From assembly GCF_003011925.2 (NCBI RefSeq), contig NZ_PXXU01000001.1, forward strand, positions 62,001 through 126,000: 64,000 bases of DNA, written 5' to 3'. Under the pieces are notes generated by a model, which did no database searches, was not told the origin of the DNA, and saw nothing but the letters and a program-made list of their open reading frames with translations. Below, piece by piece: positions 5,449 through 24,680 of this stretch (its first letter is position 1; each line of letters starts with the position of its first letter). The position numbers and the translations under genes are program-made. Source of the DNA: Nitrosomonas supralitoralis. Lineage in GTDB: Bacteria; Pseudomonadota; Gammaproteobacteria; Burkholderiales; Nitrosomonadaceae.

Positions 5449-7788
5449 TTATTCTGCAATCAACACTTCATAGTCAGTGCTCTCCCATTTTTCCTGATCC
5501 AGCCAATAAAAAGTAAATTGTATTGTATCTCCAGGCTTGAGTCCGACGACCGGAAGTTCTGCCACATATACACCGAGTCCTGTATCTCTGGTGTCTATAT
5601 CCTGAGCATCGTGCCAGGAATTGATACCCCAATGTACCCGTGCAGGGGCTCTGAGTGCAATGGTGAATGTGTTACCGGAACGTATGTGTCGCGGGAGATA
5701 TCGTGGCCCCCAAAGTTCGTGGGTAATTTCAGGACGTATTCCTTGATAGCGTTTCCAGGTAGCGACAGGGCGATCGACTGGATAACCGAGTATACGACTG
5801 TAACACAGCTTGATAAACTCGCTATGCGCCCAAACAAGCGGCATAGCGGAATCGCTCGGTTTGCCTGGATTCAGATGATGTTCGGGAACAGGCTCGCTAT
5901 CCCATACCTGCTCGGGGATAAGACCGCCGACGCCGGTCATGGCAGCCATGGCTTCCAGATAAGGTAGCGGATCATTTCCTGACAGAAGTGCATAATGACC
6001 TCGCTCTCCAGTCAGAAGCGGCCAGCCTCGTCCACGCCCCGAGCCATCAAAAGCGCTGCCGTCTTCATGCTCTCCATAGCCGTCTCCATTATAGCGATGC
6101 CAGACGGGTCCGCTGGGAGTATCAGTCTTAAGCTTTTGATCAATGATTTTCAGACTATCGAGAATACAAGTGTCATCTGCTTTACGCAGCCCGTAGCGCA
6201 CCAACTGCAGAAAATCGGTCGCGATCTGCTCATTGGCGGGCAGATTCGGGTCACATGCACGGTTTTTAATCAGGACATGTTCGGATTGGGCGCCTTCATG
6301 AACCAGCGCATCTTCTGGAGTGATGCGGATATAATAACCGGACACCTTTAATTTCCTGGCGAGTGAGGTATCTGCTACAAATGTCCATTCCTCAAGCCGG
6401 GCATTCCAGCTGTCAGCAAGCTGCAGCGCAAATCCCCGCGCTTCTTCATCGAGAAAAATACTGCCTTCAACAAGTGCTGCAATGGCTACTGCCAGCGTGA
6501 AGGTATTGACGCCCGAGTCTTCTTCCCATCTATCCTGACCGGTAACCGGACCTTCGCGAGCAATGAAGCCTAATGCCCGTCTGACCATATCCTTGCAAGA
6601 AATGCCTCCGAGCTCGCCACGATCACGCAATGCAGAAGCCAGGAGGACAGGGAACGCAGCTTCGTCAAGCTGAATTCCTTGCCAGAAACTTGCACCACCA
6701 AGCCATTGATTCTGAAGCCAGTGGCCATCCGCCTGTTGTGTAGCAATCAGATAACGCAGCACATTACGCGCATCTTCAACTGCGCCCATGGCGATCATTG
6801 CCCCTGCGGTTTCAGCCAGATCACGACACCATACCAGGTGATAACCTCCACGATTATGATTATTCTCCCCCCAAGGCACGGCAAGACTTGCGACCGTAGC
6901 ACCACAATAGGTACGGTCCTCATGAACTTTGAGAACCATGCTGGAGAGTGCCAGTTTTTGCTGAAGATCACGAGATAAATCAGAAACATTGCAATTACAA
7001 CTTTTATACCATTCCTCCCAGACGCGGCATTGGGCATTCCATACTGATGAGAAATCTTCATTCAGACTCGACATTGCCAACGTTGCCGCCGCTTCCATGC
7101 TGGATCCAAAGCCAAGAGCGAGTGTTGCCTGACTTGACAATTCACCCATCAACGTAACAGCGCCGGGACCCGCGCTGTCATACTGCCATATCATACGCCC
7201 ATGTCGATTGAAATCCTGCCAGCCATCGCTCTGTTCCAGGCAACCCACTGAGCAACGCCCCCATGTAACCTCATCTGTTTCACTACTTGCCATCAGCGCC
7301 AAACCAAAAGGCCCTTGATTCGCCCATAAGACTCTGTGTCCGTTATGTTCTGCGACGAAAGCCTGGTTGTTTTTCGCATCACCGCCCAGACGTGCTGATA
7401 AAAGCACATAAGGGCGCAGATTCTGTGTATCTCCCTGCAACTGATAGTGCAACAAAAGTACATCTCGTCGCTGGGACGGACAAATCTTTAAAATAAAAGT
7501 AAAGCGCGCGTGTCGGTGGATAACCTCAACCGCTGGAATATACGGCTTCGGTAAATTAATCTCGTAGTTCCCGAGACGACGCAGCTCAACCCAGAATCCC
7601 TGATCATCAGCAATAATAAAGCCGAGATCCCGAATCTGTGGGATATCGACACGAGGATAATAAACTTCGGTAACAATGCCCTCAGCGACGGTAAACCAGA
7701 GGCGTGAAGATCCGAGACTGGTGCCCACCATATCCTTCCTGGCGGGAGCCCAGGTAGGGTGAGATAAAGCAGATCGAGGAGCTTGCAT
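5449..7788 (-). CDS. Glycoside hydrolase family 15 glucoamylase/glucodextranase-like protein
   Basis: Predicted to hydrolyse terminal alpha-linked glucose from glucans. An N-terminal beta-sandwich region (about residues 20-270) is followed by an alpha/alpha barrel with GGYHLVWCRDLAETAGAM, WQGIQLDEAAFP (probable catalytic acid Glu) and LLTGERGHY (probable catalytic base Glu). A C-terminal beta domain of about 100 residues follows. No convincing signal peptide is seen, so a cytoplasmic role in glycogen breakdown is likely. The ATG at 7788 gives 779 residues; a GTG at 7812 would add eight. It converges on tkt with only 12 bases between the stops. The product, free glucose, is the substrate of the neighbouring PpgK. 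Confidence 0.88.
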   Translation of the reverse strand: MQAPRSALSHPTWAPARKDMVGTSLGSSRLWFTVAEGIVTEVYYPRVDIPQIRDLGFIIADDQGFWVELRRLGNYEINLPKPYIPAVEVIHRHARFTFILKICPSQRRDVLLLHYQLQGDTQNLRPYVLLSARLGGDAKNNQAFVAEHNGHRVLWANQGPFGLALMASSETDEVTWGRCSVGCLEQSDGWQDFNRHGRMIWQYDSAGPGAVTLMGELSSQATLALGFGSSMEAAATLAMSSLNEDFSSVWNAQCRVWEEWYKSCNCNVSDLSRDLQQKLALSSMVLKVHEDRTYCGATVASLAVPWGENNHNRGGYHLVWCRDLAETAGAMIAMGAVEDARNVLRYLIATQQADGHWLQNQWLGGASFWQGIQLDEAAFPVLLASALRDRGELGGISCKDMVRRALGFIAREGPVTGQDRWEEDSGVNTFTLAVAIAALVEGSIFLDEEARGFALQLADSWNARLEEWTFVADTSLARKLKVSGYYIRITPEDALVHEGAQSEHVLIKNRACDPNLPANEQIATDFLQLVRYGLRKADDTCILDSLKIIDQKLKTDTPSGPVWHRYNGDGYGEHEDGSAFDGSGRGRGWPLLTGERGHYALLSGNDPLPYLEAMAAMTGVGGLIPEQVWDSEPVPEHHLNPGKPSDSAMPLVWAHSEFIKLCYSRILGYPVDRPVATWKRYQGIRPEITHELWGPRYLPRHIRSGNTFTIALRAPARVHWGINSWHDAQDIDTRDTGLGVYVAELPVVGLKPGDTIQFTFYWLDQEKWESTDYEVLIAE

Positions 7789-8232
7789 AGACGGACTCAC
7801 ACAGATCGCCACACAACGTTGGCGAGATTGTTTTTTTTAATGAAAACTGTAAAAGATAATTCGACTAATCTAATGCACGAATCTAAATACTGTCAATTGT
7901 AACTGAAAATAATTTCTTGATTGAGAGGCATAAATCTTATTGCGGGTTCCGCAAATGAAAGTTTCACATTCAGTCCAACAATCGATCAATAGGAACTGAT
8001 CCAATGGCCGAAAAACATCTGATTTTTCTAGGCAGAGGCCGGGGAGATTAGGAAGACACAGGGTGGTCAAAGGTAAATCACTCTCCATTTCATAACTTCG
8101 TGTTATGCAACGTTCGGTTCCATGAAAATCACTTACCTCAATTAATTGGCACAACGCGCCTCAGTGATATATTATTTCTCGGTTACTTACACATTTGCGC
8201 AAAGTATTTACAATGCGCATGCATATTATCAA
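7789..8232. other. Intergenic region between divergent GH15 and SCO genes
   Basis: This stretch of about 440 bases separates two divergently transcribed genes and so must hold both promoters. It is AT-rich with a T-run near 7830. I see no convincing gene, tRNA or strong hairpin; a minus-strand frame at 7870-8154 has no recognisable protein character. Confidence 0.4.
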
Positions 8233-15676: not shown

Positions 15677-16681
15677 ATGATTAAAGCATACGCCGCATCC
15701 GAGTCAGGTGGAAAACTTAAGCCTTTCGAATACAATCCAGGACCATTGGGCAGGAACGATGTGGAAATCGCGATTGAGTACTGCGGCCTGTGCCACAGCG
15801 ACCTCAGCATGCTGCATAACAACTGGGGAATCACGCAGTATCCATTTGTACCAGGACATGAAATCATCGGCACGATTGCGGCCAAAGGCGCGTATGTTAA
15901 AAATTTCACGCTGGGACAGCGCGTCGGCCTGGGCTGGCACGCCGGTTACTGTATGGCCTGCCACAGTTGCCTGTCCGGCGATCATAACCTTTGCGCCCAA
16001 TCTGAAGCCACCATTGTCGGCCGTCACGGCGGCTTTGCCGACCTCGTGCGTGCCAAATCGACCAGCATCGTGGCACTGCCGGATGGCTTGAATGCACAAA
16101 GCGCAGGACCGCTTTTCTGCGGCGGCATCACCGTTTTTAACCCGCTGCTGCAATTCAATATTCCATCCACTGCCAGCGTTGCCGTCATCGGCATCGGCGG
16201 ACTGGGCCACATCGCGTTGCAATTTCTCAAGGCATGGGGTTGCCGGGTAACCGCCTTCACCTCCAGCGAAGCCAAGAAGAAAGAAGCCCTGACACTGGGC
16301 GCGCATGACGTACTGGATACCAAAAACCCCGCCGAGCTTGAAGCCGCGGCAAACCGTTTTGACTTGATCCTGGCAACCGTGAATGTAAAGCTCGACTGGA
16401 ACGCCTATATCGCAACCCTGCGCCCCAAAGGCCGCTTGCATCTCCTGGGTGTCCCTCTTGAACCGCTTGAAATCAATGTATTTCCAGTGATTGCCAGCCA
16501 ATGCTCGATTTCCGGCTCCCCCGTCGGCAGCCCCGCCAGTATTGCCACCATGTTGCAATTTGCACAACAGCACAAGATCGAACCCGTCGTGGAAATTTTC
16601 CGCATGGATCAGGTCAATGAAGCTATCGCCCGATTGGCCAGCGGCAATGCCAAGTACCGTGTGGTTTTGAGCAATCTGTAA
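15677..16681 (+). CDS. Zinc-dependent alcohol/aldehyde dehydrogenase (YahK/CAD-like)
   Basis: A 334-residue medium-chain dehydrogenase, close to the NADP-dependent cinnamyl-alcohol-dehydrogenase-like group. The catalytic zinc site is seen in CGLCHSDLSM and GHEIIGTI. The structural zinc site is CMACHSCLSGDHNLC with four Cys. The Rossmann motif GIGGLGH lies near residues 172-178. A good ribosome site (AAAGGA) precedes the ATG. The gene is clearly GC-richer than the oxidase operon beside it, and a nearly full-length open frame runs antisense, which is a by-product of that GC content. It stands alone and is followed by a restriction gene relic, suggesting an acquired block. Confidence 0.9.
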   Translation: MIKAYAASESGGKLKPFEYNPGPLGRNDVEIAIEYCGLCHSDLSMLHNNWGITQYPFVPGHEIIGTIAAKGAYVKNFTLGQRVGLGWHAGYCMACHSCLSGDHNLCAQSEATIVGRHGGFADLVRAKSTSIVALPDGLNAQSAGPLFCGGITVFNPLLQFNIPSTASVAVIGIGGLGHIALQFLKAWGCRVTAFTSSEAKKKEALTLGAHDVLDTKNPAELEAAANRFDLILATVNVKLDWNAYIATLRPKGRLHLLGVPLEPLEINVFPVIASQCSISGSPVGSPASIATMLQFAQQHKIEPVVEIFRMDQVNEAIARLASGNAKYRVVLSNL

Positions 16682-17510: not shown

Positions 17511-17807
17511 TTATTGCCGTGAAGCTCCTTCAGCCAATTCAGGCTTCAACCTTGATTCAACTCGTTTCTTCCACTCGATCGTGACATAAGTACCTACATA
17601 TGCCCCGATAAATGCAGCCACGATATAAATCTTGTTTTCGACATAATTGGTGACGGCAAAAGCGGTCACCAGAATGATCATCGCTGACCAGAAGGCGGCT
17701 CCATGCGCTCTTCTTTCTTCTACGTCAATAAAGTAAAGTGTAAAACAAATATCAGACACCATCATGGCAGCCATGATTAGAAAAAAAGTAACCAATGAAA
17801 ATTCCAT
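17511..17807 (-). CDS. Small three-helix membrane protein, unknown function
   Basis: A 98-residue protein with three hydrophobic segments (about residues 3-25, 38-55 and 60-78) and a charged C-terminal tail. The region between helices one and two holds YFIDVEERRAHGAAF. A GAGG ribosome site lies 7 bases before the ATG. I do not recognise a named family. It is on the same strand as the dapF-like operon and lies 117 bases beyond it, so it could be a distal member or a separate unit. Confidence 0.6.
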   Translation of the reverse strand: MEFSLVTFFLIMAAMMVSDICFTLYFIDVEERRAHGAAFWSAMIILVTAFAVTNYVENKIYIVAAFIGAYVGTYVTIEWKKRVESRLKPELAEGASRQ

Positions 17808-17924: not shown

Positions 17925-18761
17925 TCACATCCCCTGCCAGGCATAATTGCGTTGCCAGTAACCGACCGGTTCGACGGATCTGGCAAAGACGGCATTGGCA
18001 AATCCAATCACTTTTCCCTGGTAACGCGTCGGGCCGCTGATCGACAACCCGCCGTTATCGTTTCTAACGCGCAGCCTGCCGCCCAGTGAACTCGCCATGA
18101 TCGGCAAGTCGATTCCAAACACCCTGGCTGCCACATAAGCGCTTGCCGCACTGCCAGTGCCGCAGCTTTGCGTCACGTCTTCCACACCCACCTCAAAAGT
18201 ACGCAAAGCAATCCCTTCCGCAGTACGCCAGATGAAATTAACATTCACGCCTTCCGGGTGACCGACAAATTCACACAGGGATTTGTCGTTGCGTAACAAT
18301 TGTCCGAGTGCTCTTGCCGCTTCCAAGCTGATCTCGGAGCCGATAACCACGACATGCGGCACGCCGGTATACACATAATGCAGATTCTGATCGATTTTCC
18401 GGTAATCCCGCGCGGCACCCAGATTGACCTCAACACTTTCGTTATCGACCACCACTTCCTTCGTGCCATCGCCCGTGATGATGTTAAACACGTCATTGCC
18501 TACATAGGTATCGCGGAAATACCGTGTTGCACAGCGCAGCCCATTTCCGCACATGGTTTCTTCGGTGCCGTCGCGATCAAAAATCTTCATCGTAGGCATG
18601 CCTTGCTGTTGATCGACATACAGAATCCCATCGGTATCATGCTGCGTTGCCAGGGCATTTGAAATCCGCGCCCGATCGAATCCGGGCAAAGGATTTTTCA
18701 CTTCATCAACCAGTAAAAACGAATTGCCGCAACCGTCCATTTTTGTCGCCATGATTCTCAT
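17925..18761 (-). CDS. DapF-like amino acid epimerase (diverged diaminopimelate epimerase)
   Basis: A 278-residue member of the PLP-independent DapF fold. Both catalytic cysteines are present: Cys71 in MCGNGLRC and Cys200 in SCGTGSAAS. The N-terminal motif is KMDGCGNSF instead of the usual KMHGLGNDF. The substrate-binding ERG-type motif before the second Cys reads EVGVEDVTQSC, so the carboxylate-binding Arg is replaced by Val191. This suggests a substrate other than meso-diaminopimelate. An AGGG lies about 9 bases before the ATG. It is third in an operon after a Ddl-like ligase and a GNAT, not with lysA or dapA, which again argues against a housekeeping DapF. Confidence 0.8.
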   Translation of the reverse strand: MRIMATKMDGCGNSFLLVDEVKNPLPGFDRARISNALATQHDTDGILYVDQQQGMPTMKIFDRDGTEETMCGNGLRCATRYFRDTYVGNDVFNIITGDGTKEVVVDNESVEVNLGAARDYRKIDQNLHYVYTGVPHVVVIGSEISLEAARALGQLLRNDKSLCEFVGHPEGVNVNFIWRTAEGIALRTFEVGVEDVTQSCGTGSAASAYVAARVFGIDLPIMASSLGGRLRVRNDNGGLSISGPTRYQGKVIGFANAVFARSVEPVGYWQRNYAWQGM

Positions 18762-18783
18762 TGCTTTATGCCCTTTTTCAATG

Positions 18784-19263
18784 TTAAGTAGTAGAAAAAA
18801 CAGGTCTTGTTTCGAGCTCAGGCCGATAGCCCATCCTTCTGGTCAGATGCACCTGGGCCACTCCCGAGATAAACTCATCCTGCACAATGCCAGTCAAAAA
18901 AAAACCATTTTTGAGATAAAAACGCAGGCTTTCGCTTGCATCAGCGTCCGTAATGACATTCAGTATTCTTCCTCCCTGCTTCGCGATTTCAGCAAAAATG
19001 CCGTCCAGCAACAAAGAGCCATATCCCTTGCCGCGATGACTTTCATCCACTGCAATGGTCATTAAGTGATAGGTATCAACCGTTTTTTTTGCAATCACAT
19101 AACCAATCGGCTTGCCCTCACTCACGGCACAAAGCCCAAAACACCGTCCACGCGCAATATCCTCCAGTTCATCATGAACTGCGGATTGGTACATCGAGCC
19201 GATATCTTGCAAGGCAATCTTTACAAGGTCAGGAAACAAGTCTTTTGAAATGGGTACAATCAT
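18784..19263 (-). CDS. GNAT-family N-acetyltransferase
   Basis: A 159-residue GNAT-fold protein. The acetyl-CoA pyrophosphate loop is RGKGYGSLLL near residues 77-86, preceded by the strand LMTIAVDESH. The later segment SESLRFYLKNGFFLTG is motif B. It lies 8 bases after the ATP-grasp ligase stop and 22 bases before the DapF-like gene, all on the minus strand, so the three are one operon. The likely acceptor is an amino group on whatever the ligase and epimerase make, but this is inference from context. Confidence 0.82.
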   Translation of the reverse strand: MIVPISKDLFPDLVKIALQDIGSMYQSAVHDELEDIARGRCFGLCAVSEGKPIGYVIAKKTVDTYHLMTIAVDESHRGKGYGSLLLDGIFAEIAKQGGRILNVITDADASESLRFYLKNGFFLTGIVQDEFISGVAQVHLTRRMGYRPELETRPVFSTT

Positions 19264-19271
19264 GATTTCAT

Positions 19272-20369
19272 TTATTGATGGGTTGATCTTCCGAGCAGAC
19301 TATACATCCGCCCATGATGAGTAAGAAAACCGGCTTTTGGCACTTTGTTGATGGCTGAAATCGCTAATTCCTCGAGTAATTCGATCTTTCCGCAAAAGCG
19401 TTCGGGATGACGTACAGCCAGTCGTTTCACCGCCTTATCCAGGATCAATGCGACCATATCCTGGTGCGCGATACCCACATGCCGGCACATGTTGGTGAGA
19501 TCCGCTTCAGTCGGATGTATACCGGGAATGACATTGGCCTCGAGAAAATATAGCTTACCTTTGCGCATGCGAAAATCCATACGGTTATAGTCGCGCACCT
19601 CAAGCGCTTCATGGGCTGCAATTGCCATCTTGGCAAAGCCTTTGGCCTGATCGGTCCAAGCCAGATGAGAAAGGTAGGGATTCTCCATATCTTTTACGTG
19701 CGGATCACGCAGTTGCGGATGTCCTGGAATCTTCGCAAAATTAATTTCCAGAATCGGCAGCACATAGTCTCCAATTAAACCAATCGTGTATTCATTTCCA
19801 GGCAGGAATTCCTCGACCAGCGCAGCTTGATCAAACTGGGAATAAATCGCTGCAATGGCTACATTGAGCTCTGTTTCATCATGCACTTTACTTTTCTGAC
19901 TGATGCCGATGCTGGTTCCTTCGCTGTAGGGTTTAACCATCAGAGGGAAATTTAAATCATTGAGTTGATCGCCCGGCATCATGAGTTGAAATTTCGCCGT
20001 TGGCACGCCTTCATACGCAACAATCCGCTTTGCCGTTGCCTTATCCATTTTGTTGATGAAGGTCTTGGGGCTGCTGCCGGTATAAGGAATGCCCAAGTGC
20101 TCACAAAAGAAAGGAACAATGGCTTCGCGCAGTTCCTTCTCATCCAGACCTTCCGCGTTATTGAATACCAGATCAGTTTTATCTTTGCGTTTTTCAAGCT
20201 GATGGTAGATATCCGCGCCCACATCAATCACAGCCACATTCGCACCTGCACGTTCAAGCGCTGCAGTCACTGCCGCGATGGTATCCAGACTTTCGAATTC
20301 GCCGTAGCGTTCGCCTTCCATGCCAGGCTTTCTGATATTACAGGTATAAACGATATTGAGTCTTTGCAT
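19272..20369 (-). CDS. D-Ala-D-Ala ligase-like ATP-grasp ligase
   Basis: A 365-residue ATP-grasp enzyme of the COG1181 type that joins a carboxylate to an amine with ATP. Visible features: LGIPYTGSSPKTF, the ATP-binding MVKPYSEGTSIGI loop, VEEFLPGNEYTIGL, and the metal-binding DFRMRKGKLYFLEANVIPG. The N-terminal segment reads DLVFNNAEG where housekeeping Ddl has a HG..GEDG motif, so the first-substrate pocket differs and D-Ala is not assured. First gene of the three-gene operon with the GNAT and DapF-like genes. AGGAG lies 15 bases upstream of the ATG, which is rather far. Confidence 0.82.
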   Translation of the reverse strand: MQRLNIVYTCNIRKPGMEGERYGEFESLDTIAAVTAALERAGANVAVIDVGADIYHQLEKRKDKTDLVFNNAEGLDEKELREAIVPFFCEHLGIPYTGSSPKTFINKMDKATAKRIVAYEGVPTAKFQLMMPGDQLNDLNFPLMVKPYSEGTSIGISQKSKVHDETELNVAIAAIYSQFDQAALVEEFLPGNEYTIGLIGDYVLPILEINFAKIPGHPQLRDPHVKDMENPYLSHLAWTDQAKGFAKMAIAAHEALEVRDYNRMDFRMRKGKLYFLEANVIPGIHPTEADLTNMCRHVGIAHQDMVALILDKAVKRLAVRHPERFCGKIELLEELAISAINKVPKAGFLTHHGRMYSLLGRSTHQ

Positions 20370-20782: not shown

Positions 20783-21574
20783 TTAATATTTGCAGACCTG
20801 CGATCCATCTGCCAGTTGTCCACTCGGCTGCTGGCAGTACACGGTGCGTCCAAAAACTGTTTTATAAGCAAATTCAGGCCGTTGCTGCCAAGTCAGTAGA
20901 AACTTTCGTTTACCTTCCACTGCTTCAGGTTTATCGCCAGGAACGTGAAACTGATCCAGGAGATCCTGATAAAACGCTTTTCGCTGCCAATAATTCACGT
21001 GGATACCGTCCAGGCCAAGCCAATCCGGTTTCTGTTCATGCAGTTTAAAACGCCGTTGCATGGCCATACCCATCAGGCCGTGATGCACTACCCGCGCACG
21101 ACTGATGGTTTCATTCCTGGATAATCGGCAAGATGGATAAAAAATATTGCGAAAGAAAATGTAACGCCGCTCGGATAAGCTTTCAATCGAAGTCATCGGT
21201 AGATTAGTCACCACAAAGTGCGTCGCGTGTTTCTGCAACTGACCAATGCACCATTCCAGCGCTCGCAAAACCTGTTCCGGCGGCAATCCGTACAAAATAT
21301 CATTGCCAATATCCGTCAACAGCGCATAGGTCGGATATTTCTCCGCCAAATCTAATTGCCGCCACAGCCCGCAGTCGGCAATTCCCGGCAACCCGCGCAG
21401 CAGCATTTGAGAGCACACTCCATATGCACGCCCATGTCCGAGCGCCGTAAAAATCTCACTCGGCCCGCCAAATCGCTGTTGCATTAGATCAATGGCAAGA
21501 CGCAGTGACAAGGTCAGATTGCTTGCTCCAAGCAGAATGAAGCGGTTTCTAGGTGCATCGTGATAACGATCCAT
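20783..21574 (-). CDS. SGNH-hydrolase-like protein
   Basis: A 263-residue protein with the pattern of an SGNH/GDSL hydrolase: FILLGASNLTLS near residues 12-23 (block I, Ser nucleophile in GASN), TDIGNDILYG near 87-96 (block III Gly-Asn) and LDGIHVNYWQ near 197-206 (block V Asp..His). No signal peptide is evident, so a cytoplasmic location is likely. Substrate is unknown. It stands alone between the ligase operon and a divergent PepSY-like gene. Confidence 0.65.
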   Translation of the reverse strand: MDRYHDAPRNRFILLGASNLTLSLRLAIDLMQQRFGGPSEIFTALGHGRAYGVCSQMLLRGLPGIADCGLWRQLDLAEKYPTYALLTDIGNDILYGLPPEQVLRALEWCIGQLQKHATHFVVTNLPMTSIESLSERRYIFFRNIFYPSCRLSRNETISRARVVHHGLMGMAMQRRFKLHEQKPDWLGLDGIHVNYWQRKAFYQDLLDQFHVPGDKPEAVEGKRKFLLTWQQRPEFAYKTVFGRTVYCQQPSGQLADGSQVCKY

Positions 21575-22553: not shown

Positions 22554-24680
22554 ATGCTTATTATCACCGTGCTTATCACTCACTTTTTTTGTCTTGGTTT
22601 TTTTTCGCGGACGCGATTCTTGCCTGATTTCCGAGCTGCATTGCCTGTTTTATTGCTGCTGACAACCCCTGGTTGGGCGCAAAACCATCAAACTACTCAG
22701 TCCGTTATTCTGGACCCGATCAACATTTCCGCCACTCGCAGCGAGCGCTCACCCGCGCAGATCCCTAACAGTATTACGCAGATCAGACGTGACCCGCAGC
22801 AGAATTTTCAACCGGGCGCAACTTTGGATGAGTTTGCGCGCGGCACACCGGGAGTTTTCTTTCAGAACCAGTTTAATTTCACACAGGATTTACGCATTGC
22901 CATTCGTGGGTTTGGCGCACGCTCACCATTTGGTGTGAGAGGGATACAAATGCGCGTGGATGGAATTCCGCAGACGCTGCCGGACGGGCAAACGCAATTG
23001 GATTCGATCGATCCATCATTAATCGAGCGTATGGATATTGTACGCGGACCATCGGCAGCGTTGTACGGTAATGCTTCCGGCGGTTTGATCGACATCACTA
23101 CGCGTGAAGCGCCGGCGGATAAATTCGTTGTGATGCCGCGCCAAGTGTTCGGACAGTATGGTTACCTGAAATCCGAGTTGTTCATGGGCGGACGCAGCGG
23201 AAATTTCGGCTATAGCCTGTATGGCTCTCACTTGCAGCAAGACGGCTGGCGTAATCACAGCGCGATGCAAAATACGTTTTCTCAGGTCAAATTGAATTTT
23301 CAAACCAGCACACATTCCGACCTGATGCTGGTTTTACGGGAACTCTATTCACCGCTGGCCAAGGATCCGGGCGCTTTGACCAGCGCGGAGGTACAGACCA
23401 ATCCACGTCAGGCTTCGACACGTAATGTGCAATACAACGCCGGTGAGGAAATCCGCCAGGAAGAAGTGGGCATACGATTTCGTCAAAGACTCTCAGCCGG
23501 AAAGGAATTTACAGTGACAGCGCACATGCTGCACCGCGATTTCCAAAGCCGTCAACCATTCTTCGACGGTGGACAAGTACAGTTTGACCGCCTAGTGGGT
23601 GGATTGATGATGCAGTTTGTCAACGACCATGAATTGTTCAATCGCCCCAACCGTTTTCTGATCGGCGTCGATTACGGCATACAGAATGATGATCGGCAGC
23701 GCTTCAATAACAATTTTGGCGTGCGCAGCGCACTGAATTTGAGCCAGATCGAGCGTGTGCAAAGCATCGGGCCATTTGTACGTAACGAATGGAATATTGC
23801 GGACAAGCTTGATCTGGTGCTTGGCGGCCGATGGGATTGGTTGCAGTATCAAGTCAAAGATCAATTTAAAATTGATGGTAATGAATCCGGTTCGCGCACA
23901 GTATCCCAAGGTAGTGGTTCCGCTGGGCTGGTGTACCATCTAAACGATCAACAGCAACTTTACGCACATGTCACATCCGTCTTTGAAGCGCCGACCACCA
24001 CCGAATTGCTCAACAATCCGGCTGGCAGAGGCGGTTTTAATCCAAATCTGAACGCACAGACATCGCTCAGCAATGAGGCTGGATTTCGTGGTAACACAGC
24101 GGGATTTCAGTACGACACCGCGCTCTTCTTTATCCGCACTTGGGACGAAATCACGCCCTTTGAATTGACCTCGTCGCCCGGCCGGGCATTTTTCCGCAAC
24201 GCCGGCCAATCAAGACGCGTCGGTGTGGAGTCACGTCTCGCCACGCCAGAATGGAAAGGTCTGCGTGGGGAAATCAGTTACACCTTCTCCGATTTTGCGT
24301 TCGATAAATACGTAGTCAATGACATAAATTTAAAAGGTAATGTTTTTCCGGGCATCCCCACGCATCGCTGGGAAGGATTGCTGCGCTACTCACACCCGTT
24401 CGGTTTCTTCGGGCAGTTGCATGTGCACCGTGTCGGCGAATTTTATGTCAACGACTTCAATACCGCGACCAATCCGGCGTATAACCTGGGGCAATTACTC
24501 TTCGGCTGGGAATTGAAACGGAACGGGTTCGATGGTTCGTTGTTTCTCGGCGTCAACAATTTATTCGATGCGCAATATAATGCCAATACTCGCGTTAATG
24601 CGGCACTTGGTCGCTATTATGAGCCGGGGCCACCACTCAATCTGTTTGGCGGAATACGAATGCGCGTTGTGGTATTTTAG
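22554..24680 (+). CDS. TonB-dependent outer membrane receptor (siderophore type)
   Basis: A 708-residue TonB-dependent receptor. After a signal region ending TTPGWAQ comes a TonB box-like stretch DPINISATRSER, a plug domain with RGFGARSPFGVRGIQMRVDG and RGPSAALYGNASGGLIDI, then a 22-strand barrel ending in an aromatic residue (RMRVVVF), the usual outer-membrane insertion signature. Closest in style to ferric siderophore receptors (FecA/PfeA-like, COG4772). No FecI/FecR regulator pair is adjacent. The start at ATG 22554 has only a distant GGAG, so the exact N-terminus is uncertain. Confidence 0.9.
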   Translation: MLIITVLITHFFCLGFFSRTRFLPDFRAALPVLLLLTTPGWAQNHQTTQSVILDPINISATRSERSPAQIPNSITQIRRDPQQNFQPGATLDEFARGTPGVFFQNQFNFTQDLRIAIRGFGARSPFGVRGIQMRVDGIPQTLPDGQTQLDSIDPSLIERMDIVRGPSAALYGNASGGLIDITTREAPADKFVVMPRQVFGQYGYLKSELFMGGRSGNFGYSLYGSHLQQDGWRNHSAMQNTFSQVKLNFQTSTHSDLMLVLRELYSPLAKDPGALTSAEVQTNPRQASTRNVQYNAGEEIRQEEVGIRFRQRLSAGKEFTVTAHMLHRDFQSRQPFFDGGQVQFDRLVGGLMMQFVNDHELFNRPNRFLIGVDYGIQNDDRQRFNNNFGVRSALNLSQIERVQSIGPFVRNEWNIADKLDLVLGGRWDWLQYQVKDQFKIDGNESGSRTVSQGSGSAGLVYHLNDQQQLYAHVTSVFEAPTTTELLNNPAGRGGFNPNLNAQTSLSNEAGFRGNTAGFQYDTALFFIRTWDEITPFELTSSPGRAFFRNAGQSRRVGVESRLATPEWKGLRGEISYTFSDFAFDKYVVNDINLKGNVFPGIPTHRWEGLLRYSHPFGFFGQLHVHRVGEFYVNDFNTATNPAYNLGQLLFGWELKRNGFDGSLFLGVNNLFDAQYNANTRVNAALGRYYEPGPPLNLFGGIRMRVVVF

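What the first reader, a model, noticed from the sequence alone, without database searches (positions are those of the whole stretch)
17925..20369. Three-gene operon: Ddl-like ligase, acetyltransferase, diverged DapF
An ATP-grasp amide ligase without the usual Ddl first-substrate motif, a GNAT, and a DapF-fold epimerase keeping both Cys but with EVG in place of ERG lie in one operon with 8 and 22 base gaps. No cell-wall or lysine genes are nearby. Together they could epimerise an amino acid, couple it and N-acetylate it. I know of no named pathway with this set, so it is the best candidate for an undescribed small-molecule system here.
Basis: partly seen in the sequence, partly recalled or inferred. 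Interest (0 to 1): 0.66.

Follow-up and report, generated by a model that had tools for sequence, protein, structure and literature searches.

The report
Racemase–ligase–acetyltransferase cassette of nitrifying bacteria
Some ammonia-oxidising bacteria carry a conserved set of four neighbouring genes that probably flips the handedness of an amino acid, joins it to another molecule and caps it with an acetyl group, making a small compound that I could not match to any pathway I know.

Summary
The trio is real, at the stated coordinates, with 8 and 22 base gaps. Ligase, GNAT and DapF-like gene lie in that order in 57 of 57 fetched loci (overlapping sets). The ligase occurs in 33 of 120 family genomes; samples of order and phylum gave none outside the family. 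A fourth gene was missed: a ~90-aa membrane protein (17511-17807), present in all 33 carriers. The genome also holds a canonical DapF and a canonical Ddl, so these are specialised paralogs. In 33 of 33 distinct DapF-like sequences both catalytic Cys are kept, while residues gripping the far carboxylate of diaminopimelate are lost (Asn to Asp, Asn to Val, Arg to Val/Met) and the Glu of the amine contact is kept: a pocket that suits a basic amino acid. The ligase groups with Ddl-like ligases found beside lysine 2,3-aminomutase in 10 of 11 loci, support 97/91; grouping with true Ddl is not rejected (p-AU 0.13). Best reading: a lysine-like amino acid is racemised, ligated and N-acetylated. Substrates and product are inferred. 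A new variant of a known kind.

The parts
19272..20369 (-). Ddl-like ATP-grasp amide ligase (365 aa)
   Evidence: PF07478 78.4 bits; below the curated cut-offs of the NCBIfam Ddl models listed (25 of 40 shown); K146, R263, D265, E277 and N279 invariant in 18 of 18 and the same letters in Ddl rows; 33 of 120 family genomes
18784..19263 (-). GNAT acetyltransferase (159 aa)
   Evidence: PF00583 56.5 bits; directly downstream of the ligase in 57 of 57 fetched loci, gap -4 to 21
17925..18761 (-). DapF-fold racemase/epimerase with altered distal pocket (278 aa)
   Evidence: PF01678 90.5 bits; fold match Z 30.6 to O-ureidoserine racemase, 29.6 to DapF; C71/C200 kept and distal clamp changed in 33 of 33
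17511..17807 (-). small hydrophobic, probably membrane, protein (98 aa), fourth gene of the cassette
   Evidence: no Pfam or NCBIfam family; in 33 of 33 trio genomes, 32 on the same contig and strand 1,394-2,165 bases beyond the ligase end; hydropathy peaks

Best explanation
The cassette makes a small N-acetylated amide (most simply an N-acetyl dipeptide) that contains an amino acid whose alpha-carbon has been inverted. Steps: (1) the DapF-like enzyme racemises a basic amino acid, most likely lysine or a close relative (ornithine, diaminobutyrate, arginine), by two-cysteine acid/base catalysis; (2) the Ddl-like ATP-grasp enzyme activates a carboxylate with ATP and joins it to an amine; (3) the GNAT acetylates a free amine; (4) the small membrane protein helps to place or move the product. 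Shown: conservation as one unit under purifying selection, separate canonical DapF and Ddl in the genome, catalytic Cys of the racemase and ATP-grasp signature residues of the ligase in place, loss of the DAP distal-carboxylate clamp. Inferred: every substrate, the order of steps, the product and the role of gene 4.
For: Unit conserved in 33 of 120 family genomes and in order in 57 of 57 fetched loci; gene 4 in 33 of 33; dN/dS 0.03-0.13. Canonical DapF and Ddl elsewhere. Pocket: of the residues that bind the distal carboxylate in Anabaena DapF (Asn66, Asn164, Asn197, Arg216; passage of PMC12039745) only the third is kept (D62, V134, N173, V/M191), while the Glu of the amine contact (E190) is kept, 33 of 33. 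Ligase sister group lies beside lysine 2,3-aminomutase in 10 of 11 loci, tree support 97/91 and shared insertions; a GNAT also sits in 3 of those 11 loci.
Against: No biochemistry. The join of cassette ligase and lig1 rests on a long branch, and grouping with canonical Ddl is not rejected (p-AU 0.13). The cassette GNAT is only weakly similar to the GNATs of those operons (24-30% over 80-131 residues). The DapF-like protein scores above the DapF equivalog cut-off (146.6 against 114.65). One of 11 lig1 loci has no aminomutase match (L144). Gene 4 also occurs in second copies without the trio.
Confidence: 0.4

Rival explanations
1. Racemase plus ATP-grasp enzyme close a ring or make another non-peptide amide, as DcsC and DcsG do in D-cycloserine formation, with the GNAT as a protecting or resistance step.
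For: The top fold match is O-ureidoserine racemase (Z 30.6, tied with DapF at 29.6); a DapF-type racemase working with an ATP-grasp enzyme has precedent there (DcsG recalled).
Against: The ligase is of the Ddl type and its nearest group lies beside lysine 2,3-aminomutase; no further D-cycloserine-type gene was recognised among the 28 window ORFs scanned, though no profile for such genes was run.
Confidence: 0.13
2. The genes protect against or recycle D-amino acids or a foreign amine: the racemase returns a D-amino acid to the L form and the GNAT inactivates it, the ligase being a side branch.
For: Reversible racemases can work either way (family knowledge); the GNAT has weak matches to several resistance acetyltransferases, all far below cut-off.
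Against: A conserved ATP-grasp ligase spends ATP to build, not to degrade; apart from gene 4 no other gene family is constant beside the cassette.
Confidence: 0.1
3. The ligase and GNAT modify a protein or peptide (as lysine 2,3-aminomutase paralogs serve EF-P), the racemase supplying the amino acid attached.
For: ATP-grasp enzymes can modify proteins (listing of PMC4431377); EF-P receives beta-lysine (listings).
Against: The ligase is Ddl-like, and the canonical enzymes of that family join free amino acids; no conserved target gene is next to the cassette.
Confidence: 0.1
4. [quoted passage not shown]
For: TIGR00652 score above its cut-off (146.6 against 114.65).
Against: Canonical copies elsewhere; distal clamp lost in 33 of 33; ligase below the Ddl model cut-offs listed and both Ddl amino-acid motifs changed.
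Confidence: 0.05

Closest known systems
Diaminopimelate epimerase DapF (TIGR00652)
   Same: Fold, two catalytic Cys, GNG and GTG loops, equivalog model score above cut-off
   Different: 27% identity to the genome's own DapF; Asn to Asp, Asn to Val and Arg to Val/Met in the distal site, about 19 residues missing between the halves, invariant D9 and C11
O-ureidoserine racemase DcsC with the ATP-grasp enzyme DcsG (D-cycloserine)
   Same: Best structural match, tied with DapF; racemase paired with an ATP-grasp enzyme (DcsG recalled)
   Different: 25% identity; Ddl-like ligase and GNAT here; substrate unknown
DapF-fold histidine racemases CntK and HisR
   Same: DapF fold turned to a non-DAP basic amino acid, with acidic residues proposed for the side chain (passages of PMC11602996)
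   Different: 14-15% identity, Z 24.5-25.5
D-alanine-D-alanine ligase Ddl
   Same: ATP-grasp C-terminal domain PF07478, ATP-grasp residues
   Different: Below the Ddl model cut-offs listed; first-substrate and SHSLVP-type motifs replaced
Ddl-like ligases beside lysine 2,3-aminomutase (lig1), apparently uncharacterised
   Same: 30-35% identity, tree join 97/91, shared insertions; operon with an amino-acid isomerase and, in 3 of 11, a GNAT
   Different: Aminomutase there, DapF-like racemase here; no aminomutase in the window or the 27 named loci
N-acetylglutaminylglutamine amide synthesis (recalled, not tested)
   Same: GNAT plus ATP-grasp building an acetylated dipeptide (recalled)
   Different: No racemase, extra amidotransferase, another ATP-grasp type (recalled)

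Membership tests
DapF (diaminopimelate epimerase) | Score above the equivalog cut-off TIGR00652 | tested here: met
   146.6 against 114.65
DapF (diaminopimelate epimerase) | Two catalytic cysteines | tested here: met
   C71 and C200 in 33 of 33 distinct sequences
DapF (diaminopimelate epimerase) | Distal carboxylate site Asn/Asn/Asn/Arg | tested here: not met
   D62, V134, N173, V or M191 in 33 of 33; contacts from a passage of PMC12039745, mapped by alignment with the genome's own DapF
DapF (diaminopimelate epimerase) | DAP activity | not testable with these tools
   needs an assay
O-ureidoserine racemase (DcsC) | Structural match clearly better than to other DapF-fold families | tested here: inconclusive
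   Z 30.6 against 29.6 for DapF, a tie
O-ureidoserine racemase (DcsC) | D-cycloserine gene cluster | tested here: inconclusive
   Only Ddl-type ligase and GNAT found beside it; no profiles of the Dcs proteins were run
Ddl (D-Ala-D-Ala ligase) | Score above the curated cut-off of a Ddl model | tested here: not met
   Best 149.1 against 243 (PRK01372); 108.5 against 245.65 (TIGR01205); 25 of 40 models shown
Ddl (D-Ala-D-Ala ligase) | SAERE(I/V)SL and (S/G)HSLVP substrate motifs of Ddl | tested here: not met
   GEFES and HPTEADL instead; roles of the motifs recalled
Ddl (D-Ala-D-Ala ligase) | ATP-grasp signature residues | tested here: met
   K146, R263, D265, E277, N279 invariant in 18 of 18, same letters in Ddl rows
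Lysine-2,3-aminomutase-linked ligase (lig1) | Sequence clade | tested here: inconclusive
   Sister group at 97/91, but grouping with Ddl not rejected, p-AU 0.13
Lysine-2,3-aminomutase-linked ligase (lig1) | Lysine 2,3-aminomutase in the operon | tested here: not met
   No match in the window or 27 named loci at E 1e-3; none in the own genome, a search without positive control
GNAT N-acetyltransferase | GNAT domain above the Pfam cut-off | tested here: met
   PF00583 56.5 against 20.7; substrate not testable

The most novel reading that the evidence does not exclude
Ammonia-oxidising Nitrosomonadaceae make an undescribed N-acetylated, D-lysine-type (or D-ornithine/D-arginine-type) dipeptide with a dedicated PLP-free basic-amino-acid racemase of the DapF fold and a Ddl-like ligase, parallel to a second undescribed family of beta-lysine-type amides made by lysine 2,3-aminomutase/Ddl-like ligase operons.
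Probability: 0.25. Interest if true: 0.66.

Novelty: new variant of a known kind. Interest (0 to 1): 0.52.

Why it matters
If true, it adds a metabolite pathway to a group of bacteria that drive nitrification, and a DapF-fold racemase with a new substrate. The NCBIfam model would name the racemase DapF; the same kind of misnaming hid FN1732 of Fusobacterium, predicted as DapF and found to be a histidine racemase (passage of PMC11602996). The hypothesis is concrete: three proteins, a short list of amino acids, and a compound that should vanish on deletion.

Tried and rejected
Housekeeping reading: rejected because a canonical DapF and a canonical Ddl lie elsewhere in the genome.

Neighbours as part of the system: the alcohol dehydrogenase (15677-16681) recurs in 1 of 27 named loci and the TonB receptor (22554-24680) in 1 of 27; the 263-aa ORF upstream (20783-21574) in 3 of 27. 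The oxidase genes were not searched for in the other loci beyond the family clustering. So these are not treated as parts.

Phage or plasmid origin: of 154 plasmid records matched, the 25 listed are under 35% identity and annotated as Ddl or ATP-grasp where annotated; the 15 phage records are under 30%. A viral-contig scan gave one weak partial match.

Second copies of the small membrane gene: 9 further places in 8 trio genomes; in the 7 places that I fetched no trio gene is nearby. Three genomes without the trio hold a fragment or stop-bearing copy of it, without trio remnants within about 5-6 kb. So that gene is not tied to the trio alone.

Regulation: promoter-like and terminator-like matches were at or below the shuffled mean (6 against 5.7; 2 against 3.7), so no claim is made, including whether gene 4 is co-transcribed. 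The ligase structure model was too poor to use (pLDDT 53.4). Rfam (gathering threshold) and tRNA scans of the window were empty. VIA-align and Foldseek are fold matches only; families absent from the list are not excluded.

Literature: ten searches of the open-licence library. Searches returned nothing; for the others I saw listings, plus passages of PMC12039745, PMC11602996 and PMC8142540. None of what I saw describes this gene set. A survey of amidoligase operons that I recalled by identifier is not held, so the arrangement may be mentioned there.

Full report
What is there. Three minus-strand ORFs, 20369-19272 (365 aa), 19263-18784 (159 aa) and 18761-17925 (278 aa), lie 8 and 22 bases apart. 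They match PF07478 (Ddl C-terminal ATP-grasp), PF00583 (GNAT) and PF01678 (DAP epimerase) above the curated cut-offs.

Where. The window lies in a 3.75 Mb assembly of 239 contigs. The genome carries no name, but the closest named loci are Nitrosomonas (91% ligase identity in a MAG titled Nitrosomonas sp., 84% in N. ureae Nm13). I therefore place it in Nitrosomonas by inference.

Not housekeeping. The genome has another, canonical DapF on contig C179 (116.8 and 110.7 bits for the two halves, against 54 and 40.8 here) and a canonical Ddl on C190 (198 bits against 79.6 here). The canonical DapF is 27% identical to the window copy.

A conserved unit, with a fourth gene. Of 120 genomes of the family, 33 have the ligase at 68-100% identity; the other matches at E 1e-20 or better are 36% or less. 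In the loci fetched (30 of these 33 genomes, and 27 named records, sets that overlap) ligase, GNAT and DapF-like gene lie in that order in 57 of 57, with gaps of -4 to 21 and -4 to 528 bases. Behind them lies a hydrophobic protein of about 90 aa (17511-17807 in the window) without a Pfam or NCBIfam family. It occurs in 33 of 33 trio genomes: in 32 on the same contig and strand, 1,394-2,165 bases beyond the ligase end, and in one (G066) at the end of another contig. Of the 87 genomes without the trio three give matches, two of 39 residues and one with three stops. Flanking genes vary: apart from the four genes no ORF family recurs in more than 7 of 28 loci. Pairwise distances of the four genes correlate over 20 loci (Pearson 0.37-0.80, 0 of 999 permutations as high), as expected of inheritance together, though related genomes alone would give part of that. 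dN/dS (NG86) is 0.03-0.13 in 8 comparisons with close relatives. At E 1e-45 the ligase gave 4 matches in 300 genomes of the order, all in the own genus, and only the own genome in 398 of the phylum; the DapF-like profile gave only the own genome at E 1e-40 in 398. One carrier belongs to another genus of the family (G050, 73%), and one named locus is Nitrosovibrio sp. Nv4. These are samples; other phyla were not searched.

The racemase. The AlphaFold2 model (pLDDT 84.7, residues 257-278 below 50) matches O-ureidoserine racemase 7vdy (Z 30.6, rmsd 2.1, 246 aligned) and DapF structures (Z up to 29.6), a tie, with histidine racemases CntK and HisR at Z 24.5-25.5 for the best entries. A passage of PMC12039745 gives the Anabaena DapF contacts: distal carboxylate to Asn66, Asn164, Asn197 and Arg216; distal amine to Asn66, Glu215 and a backbone NH. 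By alignment with the own canonical DapF, which keeps these residues, the window protein has D62, V134, N173, V191 and E190. Over 33 distinct sequences D62, V134, N173 and E190 are invariant and position 191 is V in 28 and M in 5. The carboxylate clamp is thus largely lost, while the amine side is kept and made more acidic. I read this as a pocket for a basic amino acid without a second carboxylate; that is inference. About 19 residues between the two halves are also missing, and D9 (His in DapF) and C11 (Leu in DapF) are invariant.

The ligase. It scores below the cut-offs of the Ddl models listed. The Ddl motifs SAERE(I/V)SL and (S/G)HSLVP of the genus are replaced by GEFES and HPTEADL, while ATP-grasp residues are kept. 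Weaker relatives led to three other settings: a fusion to an M20 peptidase beside gamma-glutamyltransferase and N-formylglutamate amidohydrolase in other Nitrosomonas; ATP-grasp genes on rhizobial plasmids, one of four beside an annotated lysine 2,3-aminomutase, gamma-glutamyltransferase and 7TM gene; and, in Nitrosomonas genome G109, an operon of lysine 2,3-aminomutase, two Ddl-like ligases and a GNAT-deacetylase-GNAT fusion. A search with the first of these ligases (lig1) found it at E 1e-40 or better in 18 further genomes of four other families, in 329 searched; the 19th match is the cassette ligase. I fetched ten of the 18: nine have lysine 2,3-aminomutase on the same strand, eight of them within about 110 bases of lig1 and one about 1.2 kb away; the tenth (L144) has no match. 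With G109 that is 10 of 11. A GNAT follows in three of the 11. In the tree of 44 rows cassette and lig1 join at 97/91, and at 100/99 without Ddl and lig2; but holding cassette and Ddl together is not rejected (p-AU 0.13), and the cassette branch is long. Shared insertions, three residues in the GIS/GCD loop and one before ADL/SDL, absent from the Ddl, rhizobial and M20-fusion rows shown, support the join separately. The window and the 27 named loci have no aminomutase match, nor has the own genome in a search without positive control.

Reading. The isomerising enzyme differs (racemase here, 2,3-aminomutase there), the ligase appears related, and a GNAT is present here and in some of the others, though not a close relative. 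The shortest account is a pair of parallel pathways that rearrange a lysine-like amino acid, ligate it and acetylate it. N-acetyl-beta-lysine is a known compatible solute, and acetylated dipeptides serve as osmolytes in other bacteria (both recalled), so an osmolyte role is plausible but untested. An exported metabolite is equally open; the small membrane protein would fit that, but it also occurs in second copies without the trio nearby.

What would change my mind. DAP activity of the racemase, or D-Ala-D-Ala activity of the ligase, would turn this into an accessory cell-wall set. A ring-closed product would favour the DcsC/DcsG-like rival. The literature check is limited to ten searches of an open-licence library; the survey that I thought most likely to mention such operons is not held.

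Noticed in passing
L075:1097-6895 (Nitrosomonas genome G109): Operon of lysine 2,3-aminomutase, two Ddl-like ligases and a GNAT-histone-deacetylase-GNAT fusion; lig1 relatives with an aminomutase beside them in other Pseudomonadota families.
   Followed up: partly
L074:3082-7748 (also L076, L078): Ddl-like ligase fused to an M20 peptidase, followed by gamma-glutamyltransferase and N-formylglutamate amidohydrolase, next to flagellar-type genes in other Nitrosomonas.
   Followed up: partly
L073:2213-6978 (Bradyrhizobium plasmid): Annotated lysine 2,3-aminomutase, gamma-glutamyltransferase, 7TM-transglutaminase-type gene and a Ddl-like ATP-grasp gene in a row.
   Followed up: no
window 20783-21574 (-): 263-aa ORF without Pfam or NCBIfam match, upstream of the ligase on the same strand; also upstream in L047, L064 and L069.
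   Followed up: partly
window 17511-17807 (-) and second copies, e.g. L112:6285-6545: Paralogs of the small membrane gene at 48-58% identity elsewhere in eight trio genomes, without trio genes nearby in the seven places fetched.
   Followed up: partly
window 5449-7812 (-): Glucodextranase N domain plus GH15 enzyme in an ammonia oxidiser.
   Followed up: no
window 22554-24680 (+): TonB receptor whose best NCBIfam match is PqqU (345.6 bits, far below the cut-off of 1200).
   Followed up: no
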